Assembly: GCF_002776575.1 (NCBI RefSeq)
Contig: NZ_CP022548.1
Location: forward strand, 511,001 to 575,000
Direction: 5' to 3'
Origin: Sphingorhabdus sp. YGSMI21
GTDB lineage: Bacteria > Pseudomonadota > Alphaproteobacteria > Sphingomonadales > Sphingomonadaceae
Length of the DNA stretch: 64,000 bases
Position 1 is the stretch's first letter; the number at the start of each line of letters is the position of its first letter. Under the pieces are notes generated by a model that was not told the DNA's origin, ran no database searches, and saw only the letters and a program-made list of their open reading frames with translations. The position numbers were made by a program, and so were the translations under genes. Shown piece by piece: positions 1,865-17,358 of the stretch.

Positions 1865-4800
1865 TCAGAACTTCTTCTGGATCTCGAAGCGGAACTGACG
1901 GCCCCGGGCGCTGTGCAATGCACCGTCGAAACCGAACAATTCGTCAGACAGCGGCGGTTCCTCATCAAAGATGTTGTTGAACCCGAATTTTAGCCGCGTT
2001 CCATCCAGCGCAGTATCATTGTTGATCGTGTAGCTGATCGAGGCATTCATGGTGAACCAGTCATCGACCCGGTAGAAGGCGCCGGTATCATCCTGAACGG
2101 CACCGACATCGAATATCTTGCCGACATAACGGCCAAACAGGTTGACCGAGACCGGACCCGACCGCCAGTTCAGCGATCCGCTGAGCCGCCATTTCGGCCG
2201 ACCATCCAGTTCGAGCTGCTCGCCAAAGCCTTCCGGCCGCAAGGTTGCGATACTGCCAGCCGAAACCTCCGGAATCGCCGCCAGCAGATCGGGCAGTTCG
2301 GTAAGCAGCGGCAGGCCGTCCGCGCCAGGCGTCTGGTAAATACTCTTCAGTCGCGCGGCGTTCAGGGTGAGCTTGAATTTGCCGAGGCCGAAGTCCGGCA
2401 CGGTATAGAATACGCCGAAATCAAAGCCTTTGCTGACTCTGGAATCCAGATTGCGATACGGGTTCAAGATCTCGATAATATCACCGGCCGGCAGAATGCC
2501 GGTTCCGGCGTACAGGTCGAGTTGATCAGCATCTGGATCAGCGCGCACGACATTCGGATTGCTCCGGCCTTGCAGACGCTCGACCAAATCCAGGTACAGG
2601 GCGTTCTGGGCACCAAAAATGCCGACTATGCCGGTTTGTTTGACGCGCCAATAGTCAGCCGTCAGCGTTAGCCCGGGAATGAAAGCTGGGGAAACGACGA
2701 CACCAAAATTGATACTCTGGCTCTTCTCCGGCTCAAGATCGTCGCCGGTCCGATAGTCGACAACCGATCGGGTGCCGCAATCTCCAGCATCCGTTTCGAT
2801 GCCCTTGATAAGCTCGGCAACACATTCCACTGCCGGCCGTTCGGAGTTCGAACGGGTCGTGCCGGTATCATTGACCTGGATCAGGTTCGGAGCCCGGAAT
2901 CCTCGCGACCATGCACCGCGCAGGATCACACCTGAAAAGGGCGTCCACGCAGCGGCGGCCCGGGGAACGAACGTGCTGCTGGTATCCGAGAAGCTTTCAA
3001 AACGGCCGGCCAGCTGCAGGTTCAACGAATGGACCAGCGGAATTTCCATGTCCTCCGATATCAGGGGCACGAATGTTTCGACAAAGGCCGAATATACTTC
3101 GCGGTTACCGCTGGTATCCGGCGTCGGGCTGCTGCCGACCACGTCGCTGCCGTTGGTTGCGCCATTGACGGCATTGGTAAAGGTTATCGTTCCGTCCAGT
3201 CTGGGATCGCGATCATCCAGAAAAGTCTCCCGGCGGAACTCTATCCCGCCAGCCAAGCCGACATCACCCGCTGGCAGGGTGAAGATATCGGGTCTGGAGA
3301 CCTTGAAATCGGCGAGCGCCAATGTCGTCTCGCCCTTGCGGAACACGTCAATGGAAATATCTTCCAGAACCTGGGCGTTGCTCGGGGTACAATCGCCGAC
3401 ATTTACATTATCGAGACAGCCCCCGTTGAACGGATTATATGCGGTCGCGTCATTGCGGTTGATCGCATCCTGCAACAGGCTGCTGGATATCCGGTTGTGG
3501 GCCAGATCGGTGGTATTGGCCTGCGAATAGAGAAAGCCGGTATCAAAATCCCAGCCCCACAAGTCACCTTTCAGGCCTGCGACCACACGATAGGTGTTTT
3601 TTGACACCGTGATGCTGCGCGGCCCCGCGTCGATTACACGATAATTTTCCAGCAACAGGTCGCGACCGGAATCGCTCACTCCGGACCCAAGTCCGTCAAG
3701 CCGGTTCGGGTTGGGAGACCCGTCGAGCAATGTCGTGGCGCCCAGAGGATTATAATAGGCCGATGACAGAACGCCCAGCGGCACGGCTGACAGTGGGCCA
3801 CTTTGTTCACGAACGCGCGTCGACTTCGATCGATAGAACGACCCTTCGGCGTAAAATTCAACGGCATCGCTCAGTTCGTGGTTGAAGAGCGCGGAGATAT
3901 TGTAGCGGTCTTTCTCGGAATAGAGGCTCCGGTCCGTGTTTGAATCATATCGGAGATCGGAATCCACGCTGGATCCGTTATCTGCGCAAAGGCCGTTGCC
4001 AAGTTCGACAGATCGCGTGTCGCCTGCCGTCAGGAAGCTGCATGGCTGGATGTGAAAATCGTCATCGCGTATGGCCCAGATATTGCTGGAAGTCGCACCC
4101 GATCCTTGAATGTCGAATGTCGCCCAGGGGGTATCCGAGGTTCTGTTATGGAAATTGGCGTCGCCTTCGAATTCCGTACCTTCGACGAACGGACGGAGAT
4201 CGCTGCTCGCAGAATAGTCGCGCATCGAAGTCGGCGCGCCATTTTCATGATAATAATAGCCGTAAAGCGTCAGATTGCTGCGGCCTTCGTTGAAATCGAA
4301 GCCATAGCCGCCACGAATGCTCGAATTGTAAAGGCTCGTCCCCATGGACGCGGCATAGTTCGCGCGCAGGAACCCGCCGTCCAGATTGTCTTTCAGGATC
4401 GTGTTCACCACACCGGCAACGGCGTCAGCGCCGTAGAGCGCGGAGGCACCGTCCCGCAGGACTTCGATGCGGCGGACGGCACCGGGTGCGATTTCGTTCG
4501 TGTCCGACGATACGACCGGAACGAACAATTCGGTCTGGAAACCGGGATTGAGAACCATCCGGCGACCGTTGATCAGAAGCAGTGTGTTGCCCGTGCCCAA
4601 TCCGCGCAAATTGATCGACGCAATGTCGCCGCGCGCAGCGTTCGGGCTGTTCGACTGGCTGCTCTGATCGTTGAACTCGACCGTACCGGCTTGCGGTATG
4701 GCCCGGAAAAGATCATCGCCCGAATCCGCACCCGTGGCTTCGATTGCCACTTCATCAAGCACCGTTACCGGCAGGATATCATCGATTTTCGCGCCCTTGA

Positions 4801-4960
4801 TCTGCGAGCCGGTGACTACGATCACATTTTCATCGATTGCAACATCCTGTGCCGCCGCATCCTGCGCCGCTATTTCTTGCGCGAATGCGGTGCCCGTCCC
4901 CGTCGCGAATAAAGCTGTTGTGCACATTAACGCACAGATTCGTGTTCTTGATTGTGACAT
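1865..4960 (-). CDS. TonB-dependent receptor (peptide/amino-acid locus)
   Basis: This 1031-aa outer-membrane receptor has a signal peptide ending AFAQ near residue 28. A TonB box-like ENVIVVTGS follows, then a plug domain (to about residue 190, with the RGDIASINLRGLG and NGRRM segments) and a long beta-barrel ending in the aromatic terminus FEIQKKF. Family knowledge: it imports a ligand across the outer membrane using TonB/ExbBD energy. The genes immediately downstream encode a carboxypeptidase and a D-aminoacylase-like enzyme and the upstream gene is a LysR regulator, so the ligand is probably a peptide or acylated amino acid (inference). It lacks the ATTGGTAT operator module found before the two alginate-locus TBDRs. 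Confidence 0.93.
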   Translation of the reverse strand: MSQSRTRICALMCTTALFATGTGTAFAQEIAAQDAAAQDVAIDENVIVVTGSQIKGAKIDDILPVTVLDEVAIEATGADSGDDLFRAIPQAGTVEFNDQSSQSNSPNAARGDIASINLRGLGTGNTLLLINGRRMVLNPGFQTELFVPVVSSDTNEIAPGAVRRIEVLRDGASALYGADAVAGVVNTILKDNLDGGFLRANYAASMGTSLYNSSIRGGYGFDFNEGRSNLTLYGYYYHENGAPTSMRDYSASSDLRPFVEGTEFEGDANFHNRTSDTPWATFDIQGSGATSSNIWAIRDDDFHIQPCSFLTAGDTRSVELGNGLCADNGSSVDSDLRYDSNTDRSLYSEKDRYNISALFNHELSDAVEFYAEGSFYRSKSTRVREQSGPLSAVPLGVLSSAYYNPLGATTLLDGSPNPNRLDGLGSGVSDSGRDLLLENYRVIDAGPRSITVSKNTYRVVAGLKGDLWGWDFDTGFLYSQANTTDLAHNRISSSLLQDAINRNDATAYNPFNGGCLDNVNVGDCTPSNAQVLEDISIDVFRKGETTLALADFKVSRPDIFTLPAGDVGLAGGIEFRRETFLDDRDPRLDGTITFTNAVNGATNGSDVVGSSPTPDTSGNREVYSAFVETFVPLISEDMEIPLVHSLNLQLAGRFESFSDTSSTFVPRAAAAWTPFSGVILRGAWSRGFRAPNLIQVNDTGTTRSNSERPAVECVAELIKGIETDAGDCGTRSVVDYRTGDDLEPEKSQSINFGVVVSPAFIPGLTLTADYWRVKQTGIVGIFGAQNALYLDLVERLQGRSNPNVVRADPDADQLDLYAGTGILPAGDIIEILNPYRNLDSRVSKGFDFGVFYTVPDFGLGKFKLTLNAARLKSIYQTPGADGLPLLTELPDLLAAIPEVSAGSIATLRPEGFGEQLELDGRPKWRLSGSLNWRSGPVSVNLFGRYVGKIFDVGAVQDDTGAFYRVDDWFTMNASISYTINNDTALDGTRLKFGFNNIFDEEPPLSDELFGFDGALHSARGRQFRFEIQKKF

Positions 4961-5157: not shown

Positions 5158-6057
5158 TCAATTTCCGGTGGAAGACATCTTTTCGATAACTTCGGAAAGC
5201 GCAGAGAGGCAGCTTTCTATGAGTTCGGGCTGCTGGCTATCCTTGTGGCTCACAGCGCACACCGGAAGAACCAGCGGGTCGACAAAATGATGCTTGGTCA
5301 GGTCATCCACCCAGGAACTGGCCGCTGTATACTGATCGACGACAGATATGCCGACGCCCTTGCCGACCAGCGACAGAGCGATGTGGTAGGTATGCGCTGT
5401 AACGACTTCATGCGGGAGGATTTCGCGCTCAGCCATGGATTTGGATAATAGAACGCCCGCCGGGCCACTATCCTGCAGACCAATGAAATCGGCCTGATGC
5501 AGAAAGCCGAGGTCTACCTTCCCTTCAGGAATGCCCTCATAACCGGAGGGTGCAACCAGCAGCAATTCTGCATTACCAAGCTGTTGACTGGCGAGCCGCT
5601 CGTCGGCTTCATTGCCGAAGCCGATACAGATATCGCACCGTTTTTCCAGCAACGACAGATTCATTTCGCTGGAATGCAGGGTCGTTACTTCAAAGCTCAT
5701 CTCCGGGTCGGCCAGGCGCATGGCCGCTATGCACTCGGGCAACAGATCGAGACTGAGCGAGGGCAGAACTCCAAAGCGGATATGCCCGCCTTTACGCTTT
5801 CTGATATTCCGGGTGGTCCGGTCGAATGCGCTGATCCGGTTGTAGATGTCCTCGATTTCCACGAACAGTTCATCGGCGGCGGGCGTCGCAAACAACCGGC
5901 CCTTTTCCCGTCTGAACAGGGCAAATCCAAGCTGATCTTCCGCATAGCGGAGCACCTTGCTTACCGAAGGCTGCGACACATGCAATTCGCGCGCTGCGCT
6001 GCTGATCGAACCCTCTCGATAGACGTGATAAAATATTTCAATCTGTCGTAACCGCAT
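5158..6057 (-). CDS. LysR-family transcriptional regulator
   Basis: The protein has 299 aa, normal for the family. The N-terminal winged helix-turn-helix (residues 1-65) contains GSISSAARELHVSQPSVSK, and the recognition helix is followed by LGFALFRR. The C-terminal two-lobed periplasmic-binding-like effector domain starts near residue 93 (GHIRFGVLPSLS). It probably controls the downstream TBDR-carboxypeptidase-deacylase genes on the same strand. That is inferred from position: about 200 nt separate them and contain an inverted repeat. The effector is unknown. Confidence 0.92.
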   Translation of the reverse strand: MRLRQIEIFYHVYREGSISSAARELHVSQPSVSKVLRYAEDQLGFALFRREKGRLFATPAADELFVEIEDIYNRISAFDRTTRNIRKRKGGHIRFGVLPSLSLDLLPECIAAMRLADPEMSFEVTTLHSSEMNLSLLEKRCDICIGFGNEADERLASQQLGNAELLLVAPSGYEGIPEGKVDLGFLHQADFIGLQDSGPAGVLLSKSMAEREILPHEVVTAHTYHIALSLVGKGVGISVVDQYTAASSWVDDLTKHHFVDPLVLPVCAVSHKDSQQPELIESCLSALSEVIEKMSSTGN

Positions 6058-6260: not shown

Positions 6261-7169
6261 TCAGTCTTCGAACGTGAAGCGCAGCCCGAGGCGGCCGACA
6301 AATCCGTCAAAATCGCGCACCGGAATATTCGAAGCATTGCTGACATATCCGGCTTCGGCAAATATTGAGACCCGGTCCCATGCCTGATAGTCCAGACCGG
6401 CGGTTGCGCGTATATGGGTGTCGGAACGGTTTACCGGATATAGTTGAGAGAAATCATCCTCGTAATCGCGCTGCACGACAGAAATGCGGGCGAGTCCGGT
6501 CAGCTTTTCCGCCAGCGGCGTGCTACCGACAAGGCGGAAACCGTAACCGGTATAGCTGAAGCGATTGTCATCTGCGTCATGTTTCAACCCGAGCAGCGAG
6601 AGGTTGACGGACGTCGGGCCGCCCTCCGGACGCCAGTTGTGGCGCAATTCGGCCAACCATTCGGATTGATCAAATCCGGTGAAGCGGTCCTCGGACTGGT
6701 TGCGGAAACCAAAGCGCAGGCGCGCCGTGGTCACATGTTCCTTCGAGTGACGATGGATCAGTTGCGCCTCTGCCCGCGGACGGTCGAACACGCGTCCGTC
6801 TTCGCCCAGAACATATTGATATTCGGCGCCGAGGCGCAATTTGGTAGCCTCGTTTTCGTCCAGCGGGAAGTCGGCGCGAATTCCTGGTCCGAATGCATAG
6901 CGATTAAACCGGCTGTCTTCGGGATAGAGAGCCATGTCTGCGCCAAAGTCCAGCAGCAACGGGCCCAGATCATAGCCCAGCCGGACGTCACTCTCGAAGG
7001 CACCGGCGATGCGATCCTGGTCGATCCCGTTTTCGATGATATCGGCCGGCACAACGTCCTGTCCGGCCGCCACTTCTGCGGTGACAAAAAAACCGTCGTC
7101 TTTTGCGATGGCTGCACTGCTGGCAGAGGCTGCGATGGCGTATGTGATAATCTGCAATGATCTTTTCAT
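6261..7169 (-). CDS. Outer-membrane beta-barrel protein of the exopolysaccharide operon
   Basis: This 302-aa protein has a signal peptide (cleavage near AIAKDD, about residue 23) and then alternating amphipathic strands typical of a beta-barrel: DVRLGYDLGPLLLDFGAD, TARLRFGFRN, FAEAGYVSNAS. It ends with the aromatic-rich GRLGLRFTFED. There are no TPR repeats. Its ATG overlaps the GT2 stop codon (ATGA), so it is the last gene of the SQD1-BcsB-GT2 operon. By analogy with the BcsC C-terminal barrel, AlgE and similar exporters, I infer that it is the outer-membrane exit channel for the polymer. No family name was recognised. A structural OMP without pore function remains possible. Confidence 0.75.
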   Translation of the reverse strand: MKRSLQIITYAIAASASSAAIAKDDGFFVTAEVAAGQDVVPADIIENGIDQDRIAGAFESDVRLGYDLGPLLLDFGADMALYPEDSRFNRYAFGPGIRADFPLDENEATKLRLGAEYQYVLGEDGRVFDRPRAEAQLIHRHSKEHVTTARLRFGFRNQSEDRFTGFDQSEWLAELRHNWRPEGGPTSVNLSLLGLKHDADDNRFSYTGYGFRLVGSTPLAEKLTGLARISVVQRDYEDDFSQLYPVNRSDTHIRATAGLDYQAWDRVSIFAEAGYVSNASNIPVRDFDGFVGRLGLRFTFED

Positions 7170-8995
7170 GGGCTTGCGTCACTTTGCGTCGAGAGAGAAG
7201 GTTGCCGGAAAGACTTGGCTCTCCGGTTGATCGGAATGGTCAGAACGGATTCGAGCGTGAACCAGGCGCGCATGGCCCGGAACAAGATATATTCCGGCAG
7301 CCCCAGAAGCGCAGCGGGCCTGCCGTTGATCAGGATTGCGGCCACGGCCACCAGCATCGGAGCGCCGATCAGCACGGCAGCAATGGCCTGCCAGACCAAC
7401 GGACTGGTCGGGTCTGTATCGGTGAAAAACTGGAAGATACCGAATAGCAAAATCGGCACCATCATCGCCCGCCGGGCAGAATTCAGCAGCATATAGGGCA
7501 GGACGAGCTTCCCGCGGATCGTCATCGATGACGATGTAATAATATCCTGGCAGCGCGAGGAAACATGATAGACGGACCGGAACCAGCGCAGTCGCTGCTC
7601 GCGCAGATGAGCAAAACTTGTCGGAACTTCCGAAACATAGCGCACCCGGTGGTCGACAATCGCCCGATAGCCCATTTCGCCGATCCGAAGCGACATGTCG
7701 GTATCTTCACCGTTCATGCCCGACGCGAACTCGCCGACGCTTTTCAGCGGCCCCGTTCGATAGACCGCGAACATGCCCGGCACGCCGACAAGGCCCCACA
7801 GCGCGCTGAGCGCCGGGGAATAATAGCCGTGCTTCACCAGCACCTCTACCAGCCGGGCGCGATCGAACATCGCGCCGCCCGGTGGCAAGGGTATGCCACC
7901 GACCACACCGATTTCCTCGTCGGAGAAATTCTGTACGGCGAGAGTGATATTGTCCGGCGCGATCAGCGTGTCGGCATCGATACGGATGGTGATCGGGTGG
8001 CTGGCCTCCATGATCCCGCGATTGAGAGCATGGGCTTTGCCGCTCTGCGCAACGTGAATGATCCGTCCCTGCAAAGCGGTCGCTTCGTCCATCGCCTGCC
8101 GCGCTATCGTTTCCGTATCATCGGTCGAGCCATTGTCGAGAATGATGAGCTCGACGGTTTCGCCATAATGCTGGGCCGCCTTGTCGATGTGGCGGATGGT
8201 CTCTGCGATGATATAGCGTTCGTTGAAGGCTGGCACTATGATGCTGACCGGGGCGCGGAAATCATCTTTGGCGTCCAGCCGCCGCTCGATCAGGCTGATC
8301 AGGTAGAGCTGAAGAAACAGCAGTGGCAGAAACAGCAGAACGCCGGGCCCGATCCCGCCCAGCAGGGTGATGTCCCGCAATCCTTCCACCACGGCAAAGT
8401 CGGAATAGCCGACAAAACCTGAAAGGGAGGCCGCAATCACCGCGGTGGATGCAAGACGCAAGACCGGTCGGAGATTTTTCTGCTCGCCGATATCCATGTC
8501 CACTTTTTCCGGCATCGACCCGCGTTCCAGCAGCATCAGCGAAAACAGGCCGAAGCCGATCAAACCGGCGATGATCTGGACGACCGCCAACGCATAGGGA
8601 TCACCGACAAGCGACAGGAAAATCGTGTTCAGCAGGTCGAGCAAGCAGCAGATCAGGAGAAAACGCAGCACCAGATCAAAGGCGAACAATAGCCGCGCAA
8701 TCGCTGATCCGCTGCCGAAACAGGCGAAAGCGATATAGAAGGAGACGATGTAGGTGCGGATGGCGATGGAATGCTGCCCGGCATAGGGCGCGAAAATATA
8801 ATCCCGCTGGGGAAAGAGCCAGTCGAATTCTCCTGTGCCGAAGGCCCACAGCTGGAGCAATGCCAGCAGGCAAAATGTGAGCAGCATTGCCGGCACGCGC
8901 AGCGGCGATACCGACGCAGCCAGCCCGCGCGGGCGGCTGTCGACCGATCCATATTGTGCCTCTCGCCGGGAATCACTGGTCAGCGGGGTGGTCAA
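7166..8995 (-). CDS. Membrane GT2 polysaccharide synthase (cellulose-synthase-like)
   Basis: The 609-aa protein has several predicted membrane helices before the catalytic domain (roughly 35-55, 80-155, 180-235), a cytosolic GT-A domain (about 248-475) and further C-terminal helices. Catalytic signatures are DNGSTDDT (287-294, UDP binding), RIDADT (338-343, DxD metal site), NGEDTD (Glu430/Asp431, TED-like catalytic base) and QRLRW (467-471), the Q-x-x-R-W hallmark of processive inverting synthases. No C-terminal PilZ domain is present, so c-di-GMP control of the BcsA type is unlikely. The start is TTG, overlapping the BcsB-like TGA stop (TTGA). The sugar polymerised is not readable from sequence; the neighbours suggest a beta-linked and perhaps sulfoquinovose-containing chain. 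Confidence 0.88.
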   Translation of the reverse strand: MTTPLTSDSRREAQYGSVDSRPRGLAASVSPLRVPAMLLTFCLLALLQLWAFGTGEFDWLFPQRDYIFAPYAGQHSIAIRTYIVSFYIAFACFGSGSAIARLLFAFDLVLRFLLICCLLDLLNTIFLSLVGDPYALAVVQIIAGLIGFGLFSLMLLERGSMPEKVDMDIGEQKNLRPVLRLASTAVIAASLSGFVGYSDFAVVEGLRDITLLGGIGPGVLLFLPLLFLQLYLISLIERRLDAKDDFRAPVSIIVPAFNERYIIAETIRHIDKAAQHYGETVELIILDNGSTDDTETIARQAMDEATALQGRIIHVAQSGKAHALNRGIMEASHPITIRIDADTLIAPDNITLAVQNFSDEEIGVVGGIPLPPGGAMFDRARLVEVLVKHGYYSPALSALWGLVGVPGMFAVYRTGPLKSVGEFASGMNGEDTDMSLRIGEMGYRAIVDHRVRYVSEVPTSFAHLREQRLRWFRSVYHVSSRCQDIITSSSMTIRGKLVLPYMLLNSARRAMMVPILLFGIFQFFTDTDPTSPLVWQAIAAVLIGAPMLVAVAAILINGRPAALLGLPEYILFRAMRAWFTLESVLTIPINRRAKSFRQPSLSTQSDASP

Positions 8996-10557
8996 CCATC
9001 ATTTCCCGCCGGACCGGATGCTCCGCCATCTCCGGATATTGACACGAGCAATGCCACAGCCGAACTGGAAAGCGTCACGATTTCGCCGACCGGCCGAGCG
9101 ACGACCCCGCCATTGCGATCCGGTGATTTGTAGACGATCCAGTCACTGGGCTGCACACCTTCTTTTGCGATTGCAGCAACAATGTCGCCGCTGACAACGC
9201 GGATTTTCGCTGCTGTGCTACCGGTAACGAAGGACAGGCCACGCGGGTCCAGTTGCCCCAGCAATTGGGCGGCGGCCTGGGCGTCGACTGCAGTTTCTAT
9301 CTTGCCAAGCAGAGCGACCGTATCGACAGCCGATAGTTTCGCCCGCAGCAGGGAAAGACTGTCCGACGCGCGCTGCCCTCCCCCTTTCAACACGGTGTCG
9401 GGCAGCAGCTCGGCAATTGACTGCGTATCGGTTCCGCATCGGTTAAGATTGCTGTCGCCGGAGGCCAGCAATATTTCCACCTTGTTATCAGCCTGATGCA
9501 GACCGGCCGGGAGCGGTATCGATTGGCTGACGCGTTCCGTCTGGGATGACAGACGCCGCGAGAAGAGCAAATGATCGTTGAGAGCGACGGTAAGGTCATA
9601 GCTCGTATCATTGCCCGTCGGCCCTACAACGAGACGCATGTCCAGAGCCGATGGCAATATCTGGTTGGGCAGATCGGTGACACTATAATGATAGCGCCAG
9701 CTGGTCTGCCGGTCGAATTTGCGCATGCCGCGATTGATATTTTTGCCGGTGAACGGGATGGGATAGGCGGGCTGGATAAAGACATCGCTATAGGGCTTTG
9801 CTTCGCCGGAAAGTTTTGTCAGAGCGACGCTATCAAGACCATTGGGACCGAAGTGAAGCAAATAGCCCTTCTGCACCAGCCGGGCACCGTGCACCAACGA
9901 TATCAGCGCCTCTTCATTGCTGTTGCGTGCATTCCATGAAACCGGAACCCGGCCACCCCAAAGGGCGAGACGGTCGCTCGTCGTTTCAACCGGCTTGGCG
10001 AGTTCCAGACGCAATCCGCTTTGTGGCTTTATCTCGACCACGGCGGCGATGGAATCATTGGGAGAGCATTGGGCGATCTCCCCACGGCCCTGCAAGCTCA
10101 ACCCGACGTCGAGCGTACCACTCGACAGCTCGCTTGCAGTCAACTCGATCTCGGCTTTCTGCTGGCCCTTGCTCTGGTTCAAAAGAATATCAGCGCGTTT
10201 GACCCCGTTGATCGAGACGCGCAGAACGCCTTCGACGCCTTCGGTGACACGGCTGGAATATACCAGTTCATACCGGCCGCTGACCGGTCGGGCATCGTTC
10301 GGCAAATGAAAGACCAGCCCGGTATAGGATGGAAGTCCGCTGAGAATGAGCGGCGTGTCAGAGTCCTGTCCCGTCGTGAACACGCTGGTCCCACTGATAT
10401 CAGAACCCAGACCCGCCGCACCTTCATAGTCGGAAAATTGCTGCTGTTCGCCACCGCTGAGCTTGGTCCAGCCTGATTTGAAGGCACCGCCCTGCCCCAA
10501 CAGGACAAGAACTCCCGCAAGTACAAACGCCAGCAATCCTACGCCTATGAGTCTCAT
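8992..10557 (-). CDS. BcsB-like periplasmic polysaccharide synthase subunit
   Basis: This 521-aa protein has one N-terminal membrane helix (residues 4-22) and a large periplasmic region. GRGEIAQCSPNDS (Cys164) resembles the Cys-containing carbohydrate-binding segment of cellulose synthase subunit BcsB, and flavodoxin-like/CBD alternation is suggested further on. It is shorter than typical BcsB (about 700-800 aa), and I see no clear C-terminal membrane anchor. In Bcs systems BcsB docks on the synthase and guides the nascent chain through the periplasm. Here it sits between the SQD1-like gene (24 nt upstream) and the GT2 synthase (4-nt overlap), fitting the same role. The BcsB assignment is by motif and context and is moderately sure. 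Confidence 0.75.
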   Translation of the reverse strand: MRLIGVGLLAFVLAGVLVLLGQGGAFKSGWTKLSGGEQQQFSDYEGAAGLGSDISGTSVFTTGQDSDTPLILSGLPSYTGLVFHLPNDARPVSGRYELVYSSRVTEGVEGVLRVSINGVKRADILLNQSKGQQKAEIELTASELSSGTLDVGLSLQGRGEIAQCSPNDSIAAVVEIKPQSGLRLELAKPVETTSDRLALWGGRVPVSWNARNSNEEALISLVHGARLVQKGYLLHFGPNGLDSVALTKLSGEAKPYSDVFIQPAYPIPFTGKNINRGMRKFDRQTSWRYHYSVTDLPNQILPSALDMRLVVGPTGNDTSYDLTVALNDHLLFSRRLSSQTERVSQSIPLPAGLHQADNKVEILLASGDSNLNRCGTDTQSIAELLPDTVLKGGGQRASDSLSLLRAKLSAVDTVALLGKIETAVDAQAAAQLLGQLDPRGLSFVTGSTAAKIRVVSGDIVAAIAKEGVQPSDWIVYKSPDRNGGVVARPVGEIVTLSSSAVALLVSISGDGGASGPAGNDG

Positions 10558-10581
10558 TACATTCTTCTTTTCATTTGATCG

Positions 10582-11835
10582 TTATGCGGCTTGCTGGCTT
10601 TGCTGCTCAATCGCCGACTCATATTCGCTTTCTTCGGCATCCACGCCCAGCGCCTGCGACCGGTCTTCATTCCACGCCGTACGGGCAGGAATTTTGTCGA
10701 GATTGATCCGGTCTTTGTAGCGCGACGATATTTCTATCGTATCGTCGAGCAGACCTGCCGCGAGCAAAATCGGGTCGAGGCCCAGAGCGCGCAAATGCCG
10801 GTTGCTGACGTTCAGGTCATTTTCTTCCGCTTCCTTGCGCGGGTTCGGAACATAGGCAATTTCAGCGCCGGTGATCGACGAAACCAGTTGCGCCAGTTCC
10901 TTGACCCGCAAGGTTTCAGCAACCTGGTTAAGGATCTTGACCGGGCTGCCGGCTGCCGGCGGATTATTGACCGCCAGTTCGACACAGCGAACCGTATCCT
11001 GAATATTGATGAACGCGCGCGTCTGGCCGCCCGTACCATGGACCGTCAGGGGATGGCCGACTGCGGATTCCACCAGAAAGCGGTTCAGCACCGTGCCATA
11101 TTCACCATCATAGTCAAACCGGTTGACCAGCGCCGGGTGGCGACGGGTCTGGTCGGTCTGGGTACCCCAGACAATGCCCTGATGCAGGTCGGTGATGCGC
11201 ATCTTGTCGTTATTGGCATAAAATTGGAACAACAGCTGATCGAGCGATTTGGTCAGATGATAGACGCTGCCCGGATTTGTCGGATACAGTATATCGCGCT
11301 TGTGACGCTGGCCCTGATCATCGGTGACTTCAACCGGCAGATAGCCTTCGGGCAATTCGAAACCCGCACCGGAATAACCATATACACCCATGGTACCAAG
11401 GTGCACCAGATGGGTTTCCAGTCCCAGATCATTTAATGCCACCAGAACATTGTGGGTCGCCGAAAGATTATTGTCTACGGTATAGCGTTTTTCCTTGGCG
11501 CCGCGCATCGAATAAGGTGCAGCGCGTTGCTCGGCAAAATGGACAATAGTATCCGGCCGCAGTTCCGCGAGAAAATCACAAAATTCCTGATATTCCTTGG
11601 CAATATCGATAACGGCATAGTCGATCCGGTTGCCGGAGACTTCCTGCCATGCCTCGACCCGGACGTCGATCGGTTCGATCGGGGTGAGGCTGCGGATGCC
11701 AAGTTCAAGGTCGATACGTCGACGCGACAGGTTATCCACGATGGTGACATCATGACCCAAGGAGGACAGATGCAATGCGGTTGGCCAACCACAGAATCCG
11801 TCTCCGCCAAGCACAAGTATTTTTTTGCCGTTCAT
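10582..11835 (-). CDS. UDP-sulfoquinovose synthase-like NAD-dependent epimerase (SQD1/SqdB family)
   Basis: This 417-aa extended SDR closely follows the SQD1 pattern rather than ordinary UDP-glucose epimerases. Key features are GGDGFCGW (residues 10-17, NAD loop with the SQD1-type CGW), FAEQRAAPYSM (100-110), LGTMG (147-150, catalytic Thr148), VYHLTK (191-196, Tyr192/His193/Lys196) and the NRFDYD..GTVLNRF segment. Plant SQD1 has the corresponding CGW, EQRSAPYSM, LGTMG, FYHLSK and NRLDYD motifs (recalled). Known reaction: UDP-glucose plus sulfite gives UDP-sulfoquinovose. It heads an operon with polysaccharide synthase genes and no sulfolipid glycosyltransferase is adjacent, so the product may feed a polymer rather than SQDG lipid (inference). 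A plain epimerase role cannot be excluded. Confidence 0.85.
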   Translation of the reverse strand: MNGKKILVLGGDGFCGWPTALHLSSLGHDVTIVDNLSRRRIDLELGIRSLTPIEPIDVRVEAWQEVSGNRIDYAVIDIAKEYQEFCDFLAELRPDTIVHFAEQRAAPYSMRGAKEKRYTVDNNLSATHNVLVALNDLGLETHLVHLGTMGVYGYSGAGFELPEGYLPVEVTDDQGQRHKRDILYPTNPGSVYHLTKSLDQLLFQFYANNDKMRITDLHQGIVWGTQTDQTRRHPALVNRFDYDGEYGTVLNRFLVESAVGHPLTVHGTGGQTRAFINIQDTVRCVELAVNNPPAAGSPVKILNQVAETLRVKELAQLVSSITGAEIAYVPNPRKEAEENDLNVSNRHLRALGLDPILLAAGLLDDTIEISSRYKDRINLDKIPARTAWNEDRSQALGVDAEESEYESAIEQQSQQAA

Positions 11836-11948
11836 AAGATAAGGCCCTATTCTTCAAATATTATTGTTCAATCGGGCTAGCATCCCGGCCAGTTACTACT
11901 GGAGCGCAACAACTCTCTGCGCACGGTTGAACTGCAGATTTCCGCGCG

Positions 11949-11980
11949 GTCTAACAAGGGCAAATTACATTCTGTTAGAC
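11949..11980. promoter_or_regulatory. Inverted repeat in the divergent SQD1-operon/GH10 intergenic region
   Basis: GTCTAACA-N16-TGTTAGAC is a perfect 8-bp inverted repeat in the AT-rich 280-nt gap between the divergent SQD1-like gene and the GH10 gene. It lies 114 nt from the SQD1 start and 138 nt from the GH10 ATG. It is a plausible shared operator for both transcripts; no cognate regulator is adjacent. No other gene is seen in this gap. Confidence 0.45.
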
Positions 11981-12117
11981 TTGTTTACATTTGGCGATTG
12001 CAGTGTCAGAATAAAATAATTCAACAATTGGCCGGCTAAGCTACTGTAAACTTCCTACAATTTCTTGAGAATCAATTGCAGTTGACTTCTTGCGACCGGA
12101 TCAGCTTAACCTTGGGC

Positions 12118-13269
12118 ATGCGTCGAGATACCTCACCATTGGAGCCGTTTTTCACACGAAGGGATATTATGCGCGGCGCCGTCGGTGCGGGATTCGCCCT
12201 CGGTAGCCCGTGTCCGCTTCTGGCGGCACCCCGACCGGATGGCTCGCTGGCTGCTATCGCTGCGAGCCGCGGTCTTTCCTTCGGCAGCGCGGTATCGGCA
12301 CGGTGGCTGGACCACGACAAATTCGCCGGCCTCATTGCTCGCGAATGCGATACCATAACTACCGAGAACAGCCTGAAATGGAAATATCTGGAACCCGACC
12401 GGAACATTCGTGAGGACCTGCCGGCAAAGGCTTTGGCGGAATTCGCGCGGCATCGGGACCTGGATACGCGCGGCCATTGCTTCATATGGAACCATGACGA
12501 ACGCATGCCGGCATGGCTCGTCGAAATGACCGATGGATTGCGCCGCGGTCGGTCGCGACCATTGACCAGACACATGTGGCGGCACGCGGCTTATCTTGGC
12601 CGGACATATCCTGATATCACATCCTGGGATGTCGTGAACGAGGCTATCAATCCGCGCAACGGAAAGATCCGCCATTCTGCGTTGAACCGGCTGATGGGGG
12701 AACGCTTCATCGACCTGGCTTTCAGAATCATGAAAAGAAAAGCGCCAAGGGCTCAGCTGGTTTACAATGACACGATCAGTTGGGAAGCTTCATCTTTGCA
12801 TCGCGATGCGCTGTTGCGACTGCTGGAACGATTGTTGGCGCGTAACGTTCCGGTCGATGCGCTGGGTATCCAGAGCCACCTCGGCAATACGCTAGGCAGG
12901 CCAAGGGACGAGATTGGCTGGCGGCTGTTTCTGCAGGAAATAGAGGCTATGGGTCTGGATATCATCCTGACCGAACTCGATTGCAGCGACCGCAACATAG
13001 ACGATCCGGATCCCGGGCGACGCGATGCGGAGACCGCCGCCTTCACCAGAGGCTATCTCGATCTCACGCTCGATTTTGCCAATGTGAAGCAAATCATAAC
13101 TTGGTCACTGGCCGATGGTGTCAGCTATATGAACCGGCCGGGCTATCCGGCCTATAAAAGGCGCGCCGACGGCCTGGCCTTGCGGGGTCATCCCTATGAC
13201 GACCGCTTGAGACCGAAAAAAATGCACCGGGCCATAGCGAAAGCGCTGCGGTCGGCTCCGCAGCGGTGA
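12118..13269 (+). CDS. GH10 endo-beta-1,4-glycanase (endoxylanase family), Tat-exported
   Basis: The 383-aa protein starts at the ATG encoding MRRDTSP; an in-frame TTG lies 14 codons upstream. The N-terminus carries a Tat-like TRRDIMRG motif before a weak hydrophobic stretch. A complete GH10 (beta/alpha)8 domain follows: TTENSLKW (81-88), GHCFIWN (119-125), WDVVNE with acid/base Glu175, and LTELD with nucleophile Glu286. Family knowledge: retaining endo-beta-1,4-xylanase, sometimes with activity on other beta-1,4-glycans. It is divergent from an exopolysaccharide synthase operon, where Bcs operons carry the GH8 endoglucanase BcsZ. I therefore infer a role in trimming or editing the secreted polymer; xylan degradation is the alternative. 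Confidence 0.9.
   Translation: MRRDTSPLEPFFTRRDIMRGAVGAGFALGSPCPLLAAPRPDGSLAAIAASRGLSFGSAVSARWLDHDKFAGLIARECDTITTENSLKWKYLEPDRNIREDLPAKALAEFARHRDLDTRGHCFIWNHDERMPAWLVEMTDGLRRGRSRPLTRHMWRHAAYLGRTYPDITSWDVVNEAINPRNGKIRHSALNRLMGERFIDLAFRIMKRKAPRAQLVYNDTISWEASSLHRDALLRLLERLLARNVPVDALGIQSHLGNTLGRPRDEIGWRLFLQEIEAMGLDIILTELDCSDRNIDDPDPGRRDAETAAFTRGYLDLTLDFANVKQIITWSLADGVSYMNRPGYPAYKRRADGLALRGHPYDDRLRPKKMHRAIAKALRSAPQR
13244..13265 (+). terminator. Hairpin at the 3' end of the GH10 gene
   Basis: CGCTGCGG, a 6-nt loop and CCGCAGCG form a perfect 8-bp stem that overlaps the last codons of the GH10 gene. No T-run follows, so intrinsic termination is uncertain and the hairpin may simply stabilise the mRNA end. 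Confidence 0.3.
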
Positions 13270-13554: not shown

Positions 13555-14586
13555 TTATCTTTGCACGCGGCCAGATCCATCGCCGGACATGAGCTTCTCG
13601 GCTTCCGGCACCGTGACCCGGTTGAAATCACCGAGAATGGAATGTTTCAGGCAGCTTGCCGCCACCGCGAACTCGAGCGACTGTTGCTTGTCGTCATAGG
13701 CGTTGAGGCCATAGATCAATGCAGAAGCAAAGCTGTCACCGCCGCCAACCCGGTCGACGATATCTGTCAGTTCATAGTGGCGCGACAATTTGAAACCCTG
13801 TTCCCGGTCACGCAGGCAGGCGGACCAGCCGTTGCGATCGGCGCTGTGGCTTTCCCTGAGCGTGATCGCGATGGTTGCCATGTCGGGATATAATTCCAGC
13901 ACCTTGTCCGAAAGCGCTTCATATTTACTGGTATCGAGTTCGCCGGTTTCGACATCGACGTCGACGCTGATGCCGAGCGATTTCTGGCAATCCTCTTCAT
14001 TGGCAATGCCGACATCGACATATTTGACCAGTTCGCTCATTACTTCTGGCGCGCTCTTGCCATATTTCCAGAGCTTGCCGCGGAAATTGAAATCGCAGGA
14101 CACCGTCACACCTGCCTGTTTTGCCGCCTTCACGCATTCGATGCTGAGATCAGCCGAATCCTGCGTCAGCGCCGGCGTGATGCCAGTGATGTGCAACCAT
14201 TTCGCGCCGGCAAAAATGCTCGCCCAGTCGAAATCGCCGATCTTGCACTCGCTGATTGACGAATGGGCCCGGTCGTAGATAACCTTGGAGGGCCGCTGGT
14301 TGGCACCGGTTTCGAGGAAGTAAATTCCAACCCGGTCGCCGGAGCGCCGAATGTTGGAGGTATCCACGCCGAAACGCTTGAGCTCGCCAATCGCCGAAGC
14401 GCCGACATCATTGTCCGGGAGCGCCGAAACGAAGCCTGATGACAGACCATAGTTGCTCAGCGCGACGGCCACATTGGCCTCGCCGCCGCCGAATGTTGCC
14501 TCGAACGCGGGCGACTGGAAAAACCGCTCGTGCCCCGGCGTCTTCAACCGCAGCATGATTTCACCAAATGACAAATATTCCGCCAT
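13555..14586 (-). CDS. kdgK: 2-keto-3-deoxygluconate kinase (PfkB family)
   Basis: The 343-aa ribokinase-fold sugar kinase starts at the ATG for MAEYLSFGE, preceded by AAGGA about 8 nt upstream; a longer frame would use [18 protein letters not shown] is the N-terminal PfkB signature, and [15 protein letters not shown] near the C-terminus carries the catalytic base Asp (about residue 284) and anion hole. Reaction: KDG + ATP gives KDPG. It is the last gene of the alginate operon, 11 nt after eda, and acts on the KDG made from the unsaturated-uronate product DEH by the reductase encoded upstream. The kinase class is certain; KDG specificity rests on sequence pattern and strong context. Confidence 0.93.
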
Positions 14587-14597
14587 ATTCAAAATCC

Positions 14598-15251
14598 TTA
14601 TGATCTGGCGGCGCTTGCGAGAGCAACAGCTTCGCCCGCCAGCCTGGTTATTGCATCGTAATCGCCCGCTTCGATCGCCGCTTTGGGCGTGAGCCAGCTC
14701 CCGCCGCAGGCAACAACGGAAGGCACGGCCAGAAATTCACCGAGATTGTCTGCGGACACGCCGCCGGTCGGCATGAAACGCATATCGCGAAAGACCGAAC
14801 TCAAGGCCTTGAGCATCGGCACGCCGCCCGCCAGCTTGGCCGGAAAGAATTTCACCGTCCGCAAACCCAAAGCATAAGCGCGCTGCACTTCGCCAGCCGT
14901 CATTGTACCGCCATAGAATGGCAAGTCCCGATCGAGACAGAAACGCGCCACATCGTCGACAAGGCCGGGCGAAACGACAAACTGCGCCCCCCGATCCGCG
15001 ACCGCTTTTGCATGATCCACCGTCAACACCGTGCCGGCGCCAACAACGATATCCGAAGTCTCCGATATAATCGCCGACATGCACTCTAGTGCGGCATCGG
15101 TGCGCAGGACAACTTCGACCACATCAAGGCCGCCCGCCTGCAGTGCCTTGGCCGTCGCCACCGCGACCGCCGGGTCACTGGCCTCGATCAGGGGCACCAC
15201 CGGCGCAGCGGCAAATTTCGCCTCTAGTAGTTTGTCCATATCACTGGTCAT
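14598..15251 (-). CDS. eda: KDPG aldolase
   Basis: This 217-aa class I aldolase starts at the ATG for [10 protein letters not shown], 22 nt after the SDR stop; the longer open frame upstream overlaps the SDR gene and is not credible. Family residues are present: Glu46 (VVEVVLR), Arg50, GAGTV (71-75), the Schiff-base Lys134 in TVKFFPA, and MPTGGV near the phosphate site. It splits KDPG into pyruvate and glyceraldehyde 3-phosphate, linking alginate breakdown to lower Entner-Doudoroff metabolism. A second cytosolic eda for glucose metabolism may exist elsewhere; this copy is dedicated to the operon by position. Confidence 0.95.
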
Positions 15252-15273
15252 TTCATGCTCGCAATTCTGGAGA

Positions 15274-16029
15274 TCAGGAGAAAAATGTCCCGCCGTTGAG
15301 GTCGATATTGGCGCCGGTAATGAAGCTGCTGTCATCCGACACCAGATTGGCCACCGTACGCGCAACCTCTGCCGTATTGCCCTGGCGGCGGAGCGGCGTA
15401 CCGGCGGCAACAGCGCTGCGCACCTCGTCCTTGGTAAACGTATCGTGGAAGGCGGTGGCGATCATACCGGGGCACAGCGAATTGACGCGGATGCCTTTGG
15501 GTCCGAGTTCCTTGGCCATCGCCCGGGTGAAGGTCATCACCGCGCCTTTTGACGTGCCATAGGCCGCCGCGCCGGGGCCGCCGCCATCACGGCCGGCTTG
15601 CGAAGCGAAGTTCAATATGGCGCTTCCCTCGGGCATATGGGGCGCGACCGCCTGGGTCATCATGAACGTCGACGTGACGTTCAATTGCATGACTTGGTTG
15701 AAAAATTCTTCGTCCATTTCGGCAAGGCCCTTGCGCGCAACCAGCCCGCCAGTGACGTTCACCAGAATGTCGATCGTGTCGCCAAAGGCGGACACCGTTT
15801 CCGCGACCAGACGATCAACATCGGCCTGTTTCGTGACATCGGCCTGGACCAGTATCGCGCTGCCGCCTGCCGCCTTGATCGCGTCCAGCGTGGCCTGGCC
15901 GTCCGCTTCATTATTGCAGTAATTAACCACGACATTGGCGCCCTCGGCGGCCAGTTTTTCCGAAACGGCGCGGCCGATATCACGGCTGCCGCCAGTTACG
16001 ATCGCGGTTTTGCCTTTAAATTTGGTCAT
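15274..16029 (-). CDS. SDR oxidoreductase, probable DEH reductase
   Basis: The 251-aa classical short-chain dehydrogenase has TGGSRDIG (12-19, cofactor loop), Ser143, Tyr157 and Lys161 (YGTSK), and ends with GANIDLNGG typical of the family. In alginate pathways an SDR (such as A1-R of Sphingomonas sp. A1) reduces 4-deoxy-L-erythro-5-hexoseulose uronate (DEH) to 2-keto-3-deoxygluconate. Position between the transporter and the eda/kdgK genes makes this the expected step. Asn36 rather than an acidic residue after the second strand would tolerate NADPH, but cofactor choice is uncertain. Confidence 0.88.
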   Translation of the reverse strand: MTKFKGKTAIVTGGSRDIGRAVSEKLAAEGANVVVNYCNNEADGQATLDAIKAAGGSAILVQADVTKQADVDRLVAETVSAFGDTIDILVNVTGGLVARKGLAEMDEEFFNQVMQLNVTSTFMMTQAVAPHMPEGSAILNFASQAGRDGGGPGAAAYGTSKGAVMTFTRAMAKELGPKGIRVNSLCPGMIATAFHDTFTKDEVRSAVAAGTPLRRQGNTAEVARTVANLVSDDSSFITGANIDLNGGTFFS

Positions 16030-16071
16030 ATTATTTTCCCTGTTTTTCAGATGAGGAGGAGGAGGAAGTGA

Positions 16072-17358
16072 TCAAGAATTTTTTGGTTTCAGAGGTTTGA
16101 TGTCGGTGCAGAGGACCAGAACAGACAAGACGGTCATGATCGCCAGTCCCGCACCAACCGCAAAGGCCGGTGCATAGCTGTTGACGGTGATGACCGGGAT
16201 CAGGAAGTTGAGCCCCACCACGGCCAGCTTGGCAGCCGTGCCGGCAAAACCAGCCAGCGAGGCGACGGATTTTCCGCTGTAGAAATCGCTCGGCAATGTC
16301 TGGATATTGCCAACCGCCGTCTGGAAACCGAACAAAATGGCCGCCATCAGCAATACCGCTATCAAGGGCGAAGCCGCGACGATGGTCAGCAACAGCGAAA
16401 CCAGCATGATCAGTCCGCCGAGAGCGATCACCAGTTTGCGCGTCTTGTTGACGGTCCAGCCCGATTTTATCAGCCGCCCGGCCAGGATTCCGCCGAACCA
16501 CGCGCCGAACATCGCGCCGACATAGGGCACCCAGGCATAGGTGGCGATTTCCTCGACACCGAAGCCATAGGTTTCAAACAGATAGAGCGGCAGCCAGCCG
16601 ACAAACAGCCACCAGATCGGATCGAGGAAAAAGGATGCCATGATGACGCCCCAGCTTTCCTTGCGCGAGAGAATTTCGCCAGAATTGGGCGCGTAGGTGG
16701 CGGCCTCGTTGGTTTCGGCATTCTTCTGGCCGGTCAGGATATATTGCCGCTCGTCTTCCGTCAGCCAGGGATGGCTTTCAGGGCCGGACTTGTAAATGAT
16801 CAGCCATGGCACGAGCCAGAGGAAACCGAGCGCGCCGACGGCGATGAAAGTCGCTTGCCAGCTGCCCAGAAAAACAAAGAGAATCCCGATAATCGGGGCG
16901 GAAATGATGCCGCCAATCGCCGCGCCGGAATTGAAAACACCCTGCGCCAGTGCACGTTCGTTGATCGGGAACCACTCGGCATTGGCCTTGGTCGCACCCG
17001 GCCAGTTACCCGCCTCGGACAGGCCGAGAAGCCCCCGAAACACAGCGAAGCTCATCAAGCCGGTTGCAGCGGCGTGCAACATCGTCGCCGCCGACCATAC
17101 GACGATCGACAGCACGAAGCCGAGACGCGTGCCGATCCAGTCGAATATCTTGCCAAACAGCGTCTGCCCGAAAGCATAGGCAAAAGTGAATACGTTCAAT
17201 ATGATTGCATAGTCGGTCTTGGTAAGGCCGATATCTTCGGAAATTTCCGGCCACAGAAAGCCGAGCGCGCCGCGATCAATATAGTTGATGATCGTCGCCA
17301 GCGCGACGAGACTGACAATGGCCCAGCGGAAATTGCCGACTTTTTTCACAGCGCTCAC
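16072..17358 (-). CDS. MFS transporter of uronate/DEH (ACS/ExuT-like)
   Basis: This 428-aa protein has about 12 predicted membrane helices. INYIDRGALGFLWP at the first helix and GQTLFGKIFDWIGTRLGF in loop 2-3 match the anion:cation symporter group that includes the hexuronate transporter ExuT. The start is GTG, overlapping the kdgF stop (GTGA). Its likely role is import of monouronate/DEH from periplasm to cytoplasm, between the periplasmic lyases and the cytosolic reductase. The exact substrate is inferred from the operon. Confidence 0.9.
   Translation of the reverse strand: MSAVKKVGNFRWAIVSLVALATIINYIDRGALGFLWPEISEDIGLTKTDYAIILNVFTFAYAFGQTLFGKIFDWIGTRLGFVLSIVVWSAATMLHAAATGLMSFAVFRGLLGLSEAGNWPGATKANAEWFPINERALAQGVFNSGAAIGGIISAPIIGILFVFLGSWQATFIAVGALGFLWLVPWLIIYKSGPESHPWLTEDERQYILTGQKNAETNEAATYAPNSGEILSRKESWGVIMASFFLDPIWWLFVGWLPLYLFETYGFGVEEIATYAWVPYVGAMFGAWFGGILAGRLIKSGWTVNKTRKLVIALGGLIMLVSLLLTIVAASPLIAVLLMAAILFGFQTAVGNIQTLPSDFYSGKSVASLAGFAGTAAKLAVVGLNFLIPVITVNSYAPAFAVGAGLAIMTVLSVLVLCTDIKPLKPKNS

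What the first reader, a model, noticed from the sequence alone, without database searches (positions are those of the whole stretch)
6261..13269. Cellulose-synthase-like secretion operon headed by a UDP-sulfoquinovose synthase homologue, with a divergent GH10 glycanase
Four tightly packed genes (SQD1-like, BcsB-like, GT2 synthase, outer-membrane barrel) run against a Tat-exported GH10 enzyme. The SQD1-specific motifs (CGW loop, EQR-APYSM, YH-x-x-K) are all present, and the GT2 has the processive Q-x-x-R-W motif. In known Bcs systems the equivalents are BcsA, BcsB, BcsC and the GH8 enzyme BcsZ; here PilZ and TPR parts are missing and a sulfosugar enzyme is added. The simplest reading is synthesis and export of a sulfoquinovose-containing, sulfonated beta-glycan. 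Sulfoquinovose is best known in SQDG lipid and some archaeal glycans, so a bacterial exopolysaccharide of this kind would be new to my knowledge.
Basis: partly seen in the sequence, partly recalled or inferred. Interest (0 to 1): 0.9.

Follow-up and report, generated by a model that had tools for sequence, protein, structure and literature searches.

The report
Operon for a sulfosugar polymer
A bacterium carries a compact gene set that probably makes the sulfur-bearing sugar sulfoquinovose and feeds it to a cellulose-synthase-like machine for export, which, if confirmed, would be a new kind of strongly acidic bacterial polysaccharide.

Summary
In detail: SqdB/SQD1-like, BcsB-like, processive GT2 and outer-membrane barrel genes form a tight minus-strand operon (6261-11835) with a divergent GH10 gene (12076-13269). 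The SQD1-like protein is no ordinary epimerase: its nearest solved relative is Arabidopsis SQD1 (337 bits; next family 53), and it is about 60% identical to the Sinorhizobium meliloti protein that lies beside sqdD/sqdC homologues. In the tree SQD1-like genes sort by neighbourhood: one clade sits with sqdD/sqdC (sulfolipid), a separate supported clade (19 of 20 rows) with this GT2. Searched on its own, the GT2 turned up in 5 genomes and 1 of 72,556 plasmids, each time within 2 kb of an SQD1-like gene. None of 16 GT2-linked genomes tested has SqdD. Some related SQD1-like genes adjoin a PAPS reductase (a sulfite source). Most likely UDP-sulfoquinovose made here is the GT2's donor, and the product leaves through BcsB and a CymA/OmpG-like barrel. 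Product, linkage and export are inferred. PilZ and TPR are absent, as stated; barrel and GH10 are lineage-specific extras; CGW is not diagnostic. Seven open-access literature searches listed no such polymer.

The parts
10582..11835 (-). SqdB/SQD1-family protein, predicted UDP-sulfoquinovose synthase (417 aa), first gene of the operon
   Evidence: PDB SQD1 1i24 E=8.9e-100, 337.6 bits, next non-SQD1 53 bits; NCBIfam UDPsulfquin_syn 329.7 bits, below cut-off 575; 59.6% identical to the S. meliloti SqdB-type protein, 45.6% to A. thaliana SQD1; only SQD1-family gene in the genome at E 1e-40
8992..10557 (-). BcsB-like subunit (521 aa)
   Evidence: Pfam BcsB 33.5 bits, cut-off 21, residues 68-188; a homologue lies between SQD1-like and GT2 in 17 of the 18 other loci with GT2 at the SQD1 gene (missing in L112)
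7166..8995 (-). Membrane GT2 synthase of processive type (609 aa, TTG start)
6261..7169 (-). 14-stranded outer-membrane barrel (302 aa)
12076..13269 (+). Divergent GH10 glycanase, probably Tat-exported; the true start may be a later in-frame ATG
   Evidence: Pfam GH10 190 bits; nearest solved 9upa and 9uj3, 'Beta-xylanase', 207 and 205 bits; present in 4 of 4 GT2-type loci of the window's own family with both flanks held, divergent in 3, same strand at the far end in 1
11836..12075 (.). Intergenic region between the two divergent units, likely holding both promoters
   Evidence: Inferred from gene arrangement; no promoter scan was run

Best explanation
The first gene encodes a SqdB-type enzyme that makes UDP-sulfoquinovose from UDP-glucose and sulfite. 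The membrane GT2 uses this nucleotide sugar as its dedicated donor, alone or together with UDP-glucose, and polymerises and pushes the chain across the inner membrane. The BcsB-like protein guides the chain through the periplasm. In this lineage a CymA/OmpG-like 14-strand barrel lets it out, and a secreted GH10 enzyme trims or clears it. The result would be a sulfonated exopolysaccharide. Shown by computation: families, folds, catalytic residues, operon layout, synteny, co-occurrence, absence of SqdD. Inferred: substrate, product, polymerisation, linkage, export path, GH10 role.
For: Family: SQD1 is the nearest solved relative by a wide margin. In trees with classical SQD1/SqdB as outgroup the gene falls with alphaproteobacterial SqdB-type proteins. 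Of 80 named loci, 49 have SqdD and SqdC homologues beside the SQD1-like gene, the order of the Rhodobacter sphaeroides sqdBDC operon, in which deletion of sqdB abolishes SQDG (PMC11346425, passages). Catalytic Thr/Tyr/Lys and the Agl3-essential His, Arg and Met are kept. Synteny: GT2-first searches over 289, 199, 246 and 398 genomes (overlapping samples) hit 5 distinct genomes, own included, and all 5 have an SQD1-like gene within 2 kb. In the 199-genome family sample SQD1-like occurs in 7 and GT2 in 4, all 4 shared, p=5.5e-7 ignoring kinship and taking both calls to have drawn the same 199. The one plasmid in 72,556 with the GT2 (Rhodococcus) carries SQD1-like/BcsB-like/GT2 in a row, with a SulP sulfate permease gene about 3 kb upstream. 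Fate: SqdD in 0 of 16 GT2-linked genomes tested, of 19 such loci, and each of the 16 has one SQD1-family gene. GT2-linked SQD1 genes form one supported clade, 20 rows, 99/96; the odd row (L048) has the BcsB-GT2 pair elsewhere in its genome. Sulfite: some SQD1-like genes of a sister group sit beside a PAPS reductase gene.
Against: No chemistry of any kind. The curated NCBIfam cut-off is missed by a wide margin, although no genome sampled reaches it (0 of 190; 0 of 27). Agl3 Glu147 is Val here; the Agl3 E147A mutant kept 12.4% activity, measured without sulfite. The Met that Agl3 needs is Thr in 4 of the 96 SQD1-like rows (2 GT2-type, 2 SqdD-type; the window keeps Met). PAPS reductase linkage is seen in a sister group, not in the GT2 clade; it is scattered there (5 changes on the tree, 62 of 500 shuffles as low) and missing beside L115 and L116. 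The Rhodococcus gene falls outside the GT2 clade. The GT2 donor pocket was not tested. A hyaluronan synthase of another class takes UDP-sulfoquinovose only as a chain terminator (PMC11673988). L109 has an extra sugar epimerase (best NCBIfam match TviC, 400 of 760 bits) beside GH10, which could mean a second sugar there. Several genomes tested are drafts or metagenome bins.
Confidence: 0.68

Rival explanations
1. Sulfoquinovose is made but is only a cap or side decoration; the GT2 backbone is made from UDP-glucose or another common sugar.
For: Hyaluronan synthase PmHAS accepts UDP-sulfoquinovose only as a chain terminator (PMC11673988, passages); the nearest synthase folds use neutral or carboxylated sugars (titles; general knowledge); the nearest solved GH10 enzymes are named xylanases and glycanases.
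Against: Only one glycosyltransferase gene lies in the operon, and the clustering (66 of 80 loci laid out) shows no second GT cluster shared by the GT2-type loci; only part of the neighbours was scanned with Pfam. A separate decorating enzyme would need an unlinked partner.
Confidence: 0.25
2. UDP-sulfoquinovose goes to a lipid (SQDG) through an unlinked SqdX-like enzyme, and the linkage to the GT2 operon is accidental or regulatory.
For: The same enzyme group feeds SQDG in sqdBDC operons. SqdX-type GT4 enzymes were not tested in the window's genome.
Against: SqdD found in 0 of 16 GT2-linked genomes tested; the GT2 found on its own is always next to an SQD1-like gene (5 of 5 genomes, 1 of 1 plasmid); separate SQD1 clade for the GT2 context; the three-gene row also occurs in Rhodococcus.
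Confidence: 0.1
3. The SQD1-like protein of this clade has changed chemistry and makes another 6-modified or 6-deoxy UDP-sugar.
For: Score far below the curated cut-off; Glu to Val at the Agl3 Glu147 position.
Against: The same Val is found in SqdB of sqdBDC-type loci and the same score range in their genomes; sqdB deletion abolishes SQDG in R. sphaeroides; PAPS reductase genes adjoin some sister genes.
Confidence: 0.1
4. GH10 belongs to the neighbouring alginate/uronate catabolic genes and has nothing to do with the operon.
For: An alginate-use cluster begins at 13555; the Rhodobacterales loci show no homologue of this GH10 near the operon.
Against: GH10 is present at the operon in 4 of 4 same-family loci with both flanks held, in two different positions; GH10 occurs in another Sphingomonas polysaccharide cluster (prmN, no effect of deletion on colony morphology or polymer production; PMC11340318, passages).
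Confidence: 0.25

Closest known systems
sqdBDC sulfolipid operon (Rhodobacter sphaeroides, Sinorhizobium meliloti)
   Same: Same enzyme group for the UDP-sulfoquinovose step, about 60% identity to the S. meliloti protein; first gene of an operon
   Different: SqdD and SqdC are replaced by BcsB-like, GT2, barrel and GH10; SqdD in 0 of 16 GT2-linked genomes tested
Bacterial cellulose secretion (Bcs) systems
   Same: Membrane GT2 with D, DxD, ED, QxxRW; BcsB-like partner; outer-membrane barrel; secreted glycanase
   Different: No PilZ, no TPR, 14-strand CymA/OmpG-like barrel, GH10 instead of GH8, and a dedicated nucleotide-sugar enzyme
Hyaluronan and alginate type operons (HasAB, AlgD/Alg8; recalled)
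   Same: A processive GT2 encoded together with the enzyme that makes its acidic nucleotide sugar
   Different: The acidic group would be a sulfonate, not a carboxylate
Agl3 and archaeal sulfoquinovose N-glycans
   Same: UDP-sulfoquinovose made for a glycan, not a lipid (PMC4388408, section read)
   Different: Protein N-glycan in archaea; here a bacterial synthase-type operon
Promonan cluster of Sphingomonas
   Same: GH10 gene within a sphingomonad polysaccharide cluster (PMC11340318, passages)
   Different: Wzx/Wzy pathway; words beginning with 'sulf' do not occur in that paper's main text

Membership tests
SqdB/SQD1 UDP-sulfoquinovose synthase | Closest to SQD1 and far from other epimerases by sequence | tested here: met
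   337.6 bits to SQD1, 53 to the next family; galE model 38.5 bits
SqdB/SQD1 UDP-sulfoquinovose synthase | Score over the NCBIfam NF041015 curated cut-off | tested here: not met
   329.7 against 575 bits; 0 of 190 class genomes reached it, nor did the five sqdBDC-type genomes
SqdB/SQD1 UDP-sulfoquinovose synthase | Catalytic Thr145/Tyr182/Lys186 of SQD1 and Agl3 His95, Arg101, Met145 | tested here: met
   T148, Y192, K196, H99, R104, M149; all invariant in the 20-row alignment; Met is Thr in 4 of 96 wider rows, not in the window
SqdB/SQD1 UDP-sulfoquinovose synthase | Glu147/Tyr148 pair proposed for dehydration in Agl3 | tested here: inconclusive
   Tyr kept, Glu is Val, as in sqdBDC-type proteins
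SqdB/SQD1 UDP-sulfoquinovose synthase | Enzymatic conversion of UDP-glucose and sulfite | not testable with these tools
   Needs an assay or complementation
SQDG biosynthesis operon (sqdBDC) | SqdD glycosyltransferase present | tested here: not met
   No match in the window's genome at E 0.001 with a Rhizobium SqdD-type query
Bcs cellulose synthase system | BcsA with GT2 core and PilZ domain | tested here: not met
   GT2 core with QRLRW present, no PilZ hit; CelA model 23.7 against 699 bits
Bcs cellulose synthase system | BcsB subunit | tested here: met
   Pfam BcsB 33.5 bits over cut-off 21, but only about 120 of 606 profile positions
Bcs cellulose synthase system | BcsC with TPR and outer-membrane barrel; GH8 BcsZ | tested here: not met
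   Barrel without TPR hit, GH10 instead of GH8
Processive GT2 synthases | D, DxD, (T)ED and Q(Q/R)xRW plus flanking transmembrane helices | tested here: met
   Motifs conserved in 16 rows; helices on both sides of the GT core in the model; no transmembrane predictor was run
Sulfonated exopolysaccharide | Sulfoquinovose in the isolated polymer | not testable with these tools
   Needs chemistry

The most novel reading that the evidence does not exclude
The operon makes a homopolymer of sulfoquinovose, in effect a cellulose-like chain with a sulfonate on every sugar, by a one-synthase system that has spread between Alphaproteobacteria and Rhodococcus; sister SQD1-like genes beside PAPS reductase mark further, different sulfoquinovose-bearing bacterial glycans.
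Probability: 0.3. Interest if true: 0.92.

Novelty: new variant of a known kind. Interest (0 to 1): 0.78.

Why it matters
Sulfoquinovose is among the most abundant organic sulfur compounds, and a 2026 review describes it as the sulfolipid headgroup and a part of some archaeal N-glycans (PMC12890257, abstract start and passages). A bacterial polymer of it would be a new source of sulfonate for sulfur-cycling bacteria, a new strongly acidic matrix material, and a ready test bed for how synthases pick charged donors. The gene test is simple: an SQD1-like gene next to BcsB and GT2 instead of SqdD/SqdC. It also matters for annotation, since sources name such proteins either NAD-dependent epimerase or UDP-sulfoquinovose synthase without regard to context.

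Tried and rejected
Ordinary GalE-type epimerase: rejected. Sulfolipid operon: rejected for this locus, no SqdD found. True Bcs membership: rejected, no PilZ, TPR or GH8. Chance adjacency: rejected by GT2-first searches. Barrel and GH10 as conserved core: rejected; in the DNA held, most loci outside the window's family have neither (L010 has a barrel), and L009 has the barrel but no GH10, its SQD1-side flank not being held. Hybrid histidine kinases lie next to several of these operons in two lineages, but kinases match each other generically, so I made no claim. Papers: the searches listed no report of a bacterial sulfoquinovose exopolysaccharide; the library lacks most subscription papers. The search for S. 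meliloti gene names gave nothing useful. L121 and L124 (more distant SQD1-like proteins on plasmids) have long branches and were not used for the argument. Rows dropped: one search printed no layout for 14 of the 80 loci (the profile search covers all 80); one search left out L089-L094 through a motif filter; only every fourth sulfolipid-type row (13 of 49) went into the tree; L089 (very long branch) and L097 (identical to L051) were left out too. The root branch of the tree has support 88/28 only.
Full report
WHAT IS THERE. The window lies in a 4.06 Mb genome of two contigs. Close protein relatives are named Parasphingorhabdus and Sphingorhabdus, so it is probably a sphingomonad of that kind; this naming is inferred. 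Four minus-strand genes at 6261-11835 overlap or nearly touch, and a plus-strand GH10 gene starts 240 bp from the first of them. The next gene on one side is a LysR regulator (5158-6057), on the other an alginate-use cluster from 13555.

THE ENZYME. The 417-aa protein matches SQD1 of Arabidopsis at 337.6 bits and the next solved family at 53 bits. The NCBIfam model for UDP-sulfoquinovose synthase gives 329.7 bits, far below its cut-off of 575, while galE gives 38.5. That shortfall is shared: of 190 class-level genomes 15 have a match at E 1e-60 and none reaches the cut-off; six score 439-541 bits and nine, the window's included, 327-351. The lower-scoring group holds what looks like the sulfolipid enzyme of Alphaproteobacteria: in 49 of 80 named loci the SQD1-like gene has SqdD (GT8) and SqdC (small epimerase) homologues beside it. 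This is the sqdBDC order of Rhodobacter sphaeroides, whose sqdB deletion loses SQDG (PMC11346425, passages seen). On a S. meliloti pSymB record the same three genes stand in a row, SqdC recognised by profile only, and the window protein is 59.6% identical to the first. The R. sphaeroides protein itself was not compared.

ACTIVE SITE. Thr145, Tyr182 and Lys186 of SQD1, and His95, Arg101 and Met145 whose loss inactivated Agl3 (PMC4388408, sections 3, 5, 6 and 11 read), correspond to T148, Y192, K196, H99, R104 and M149, all invariant in a 20-row alignment. In a wider set of 96 rows the Met is Thr in 4. Agl3 Glu147 is Val in all 96, window and sqdBDC-type rows included.

SYNTENY. Starting from the GT2 and not from SQD1, I searched overlapping samples of 289, 199, 246 and 398 genomes at E 1e-50 or 1e-40. 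Five distinct genomes had it (own genome included), and all five carry an SQD1-like gene within 2 kb; four have SQD1, BcsB, GT2, barrel and GH10, the fifth (G219) only SQD1 and GT2 of this set. In the 199-genome family sample, SQD1-like occurs in 7 and GT2 in 4, all 4 shared; p = 5.5e-7 without correction for kinship, taking both calls to have drawn the same genomes. Two genomes of the window's own genus in that sample have neither, so the cassette is patchy. Of 72,556 plasmid records one has the GT2 (38% identity over 74%), in Rhodococcus qingshengii: SQD1-like, a 639-aa protein that matches the BcsB profile of this set at 120 bits (Pfam BcsB 19, cut-off 21), GT2, and a SulP sulfate permease gene about 3 kb upstream. 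In the two long protein lists 18 contig lengths recur among the 120 best SQD1-like and the 120 best GT2 rows, counted by eye, in line with shared contigs. Of 80 named loci 14 have GT2 at the SQD1 gene, 49 SqdD, 2 PAPS reductase, 15 none of these, and none has both GT2 and SqdD.

EXCEPTIONS. Thirty SQD1-bearing genomes without GT2 at that gene were searched for GT2 at E 1e-30; 2 of 30 have it, 0 of the 10 sulfolipid-type ones. In one (Pontivivens, L048/L117) a BcsB-GT2 pair lies on another contig, and its SQD1 gene falls in the GT2-type clade. In the other (Maricaulis, L066/L118) a distant GT2 (37%) lies beside a BcsB-like gene on another contig than the SQD1 gene, which is in another clade. 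G249 has SQD1 beside barrel-like and BcsB-profile hits, with a GT4 and an acyltransferase, and no GT2 of this family in the 10.5 kb fetched of a 13.5 kb contig; its 659-aa BcsB-profile hit has no Pfam match.

TREE. With classical SQD1/SqdB as outgroup, the GT2-context genes form one clade of 20 rows (19 GT2-linked plus L048; support 99/96). The SqdD-context genes form another of 17 rows (100/100): 14 labelled SqdD-linked, L100 that also has SqdD, and two on contigs with no SqdD in the DNA held (one search agrees on both clades). The root branch is weak (88/28). The Rhodococcus gene groups with G249 outside the GT2-type clade, so the linkage may have arisen or moved more than once.

WHERE THE SUGAR GOES. 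Of 27 genomes, 26 have exactly one SQD1-family gene at E 1e-40 and one (G142) has two. SqdD is found in 5 of 27: the five put in as sulfolipid-type (of 49 such loci), and in 0 of 16 GT2-linked genomes (of 19 such loci) and 0 of 6 others. Several are drafts or bins, and SqdX-type enzymes were not tested. PAPS reductase, which makes sulfite, directly follows the SQD1-like gene in both copies of G142 and on a Pelagovum plasmid, is the second gene downstream on plasmid CP081099.1, and is close by on the other strand in L031 and L056. These belong to a sister group, scattered within it, and L115 and L116 of that group lack it. It supports sulfite as co-substrate of the wider group and hints at further sulfoquinovose glycans.

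READING. The simplest account is a one-synthase exopolysaccharide system with its own sulfosugar supply. Whether the backbone is all sulfoquinovose, a copolymer, or only capped by it is open; PmHAS takes UDP-sulfoquinovose as a chain terminator (PMC11673988, passages), which shows both that such an enzyme can use it and that chain growth needs an adapted site.

NOVELTY. A 2026 review names sulfolipid and archaeal N-glycans as the homes of sulfoquinovose (PMC12890257, passages). My searches listed nothing on a bacterial sulfoquinovose exopolysaccharide; the library is open-access only. I file it as a new variant of synthase-dependent exopolysaccharide systems.

Noticed in passing
window 13555-22152: Alginate-use cluster on the minus strand: KDG-kinase-like, KDPG aldolase, SDR, MFS transporter, cupin, PL17-like oligoalginate lyase, chondroitinase-B-like (PL6-type) lyase. 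An ordinary catabolic cluster.
   Followed up: partly
L113, L114 (G142), L122 (NZ_CP065916.1), L123 (CP081099.1): SQD1-like genes with PAPS reductase next to or near them, glycosyltransferase genes nearby in L113, L122 and L123, two of them on Rhodobacterales plasmids, one also with a sulfotransferase gene: possibly a second type of sulfoquinovose glycan.
   Followed up: partly
L121 (Agrobacterium tumefaciens pAt1D1460, NZ_CP032928.1 57375-58595): A 44%-identical SQD1-like protein lacking the EQRxAPYSM and GTMGxYG motifs lies among several glycosyltransferase and methyltransferase genes; function unclear.
   Followed up: no
L042, L052 (Jeotgalibacillus, Pontibacillus): SQD1-like proteins about 61% identical to the window's in Bacillota, with a GT4 gene nearby; with Rhodococcus this suggests more than one transfer to Gram-positives.
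   Followed up: no
P0034 and P0271 (Luteimonas): SQD1-like and barrel homologues named Luteimonas share a longest-contig length of 3351776, hinting that the cassette also occurs in Gammaproteobacteria.
   Followed up: no
L015, L024, L025, L043 upstream of SQD1; L111:3328-6207: Hybrid histidine kinases lie beside the GT2-type operon in Rhodobacterales and in one same-family genome; domains were scanned in L025 and L111 only. Possible regulator in place of PilZ control.
   Followed up: partly
window 1865-4960 and 611-1861: TonB-dependent receptor gene next to an M14 zinc carboxypeptidase-like gene.
   Followed up: no
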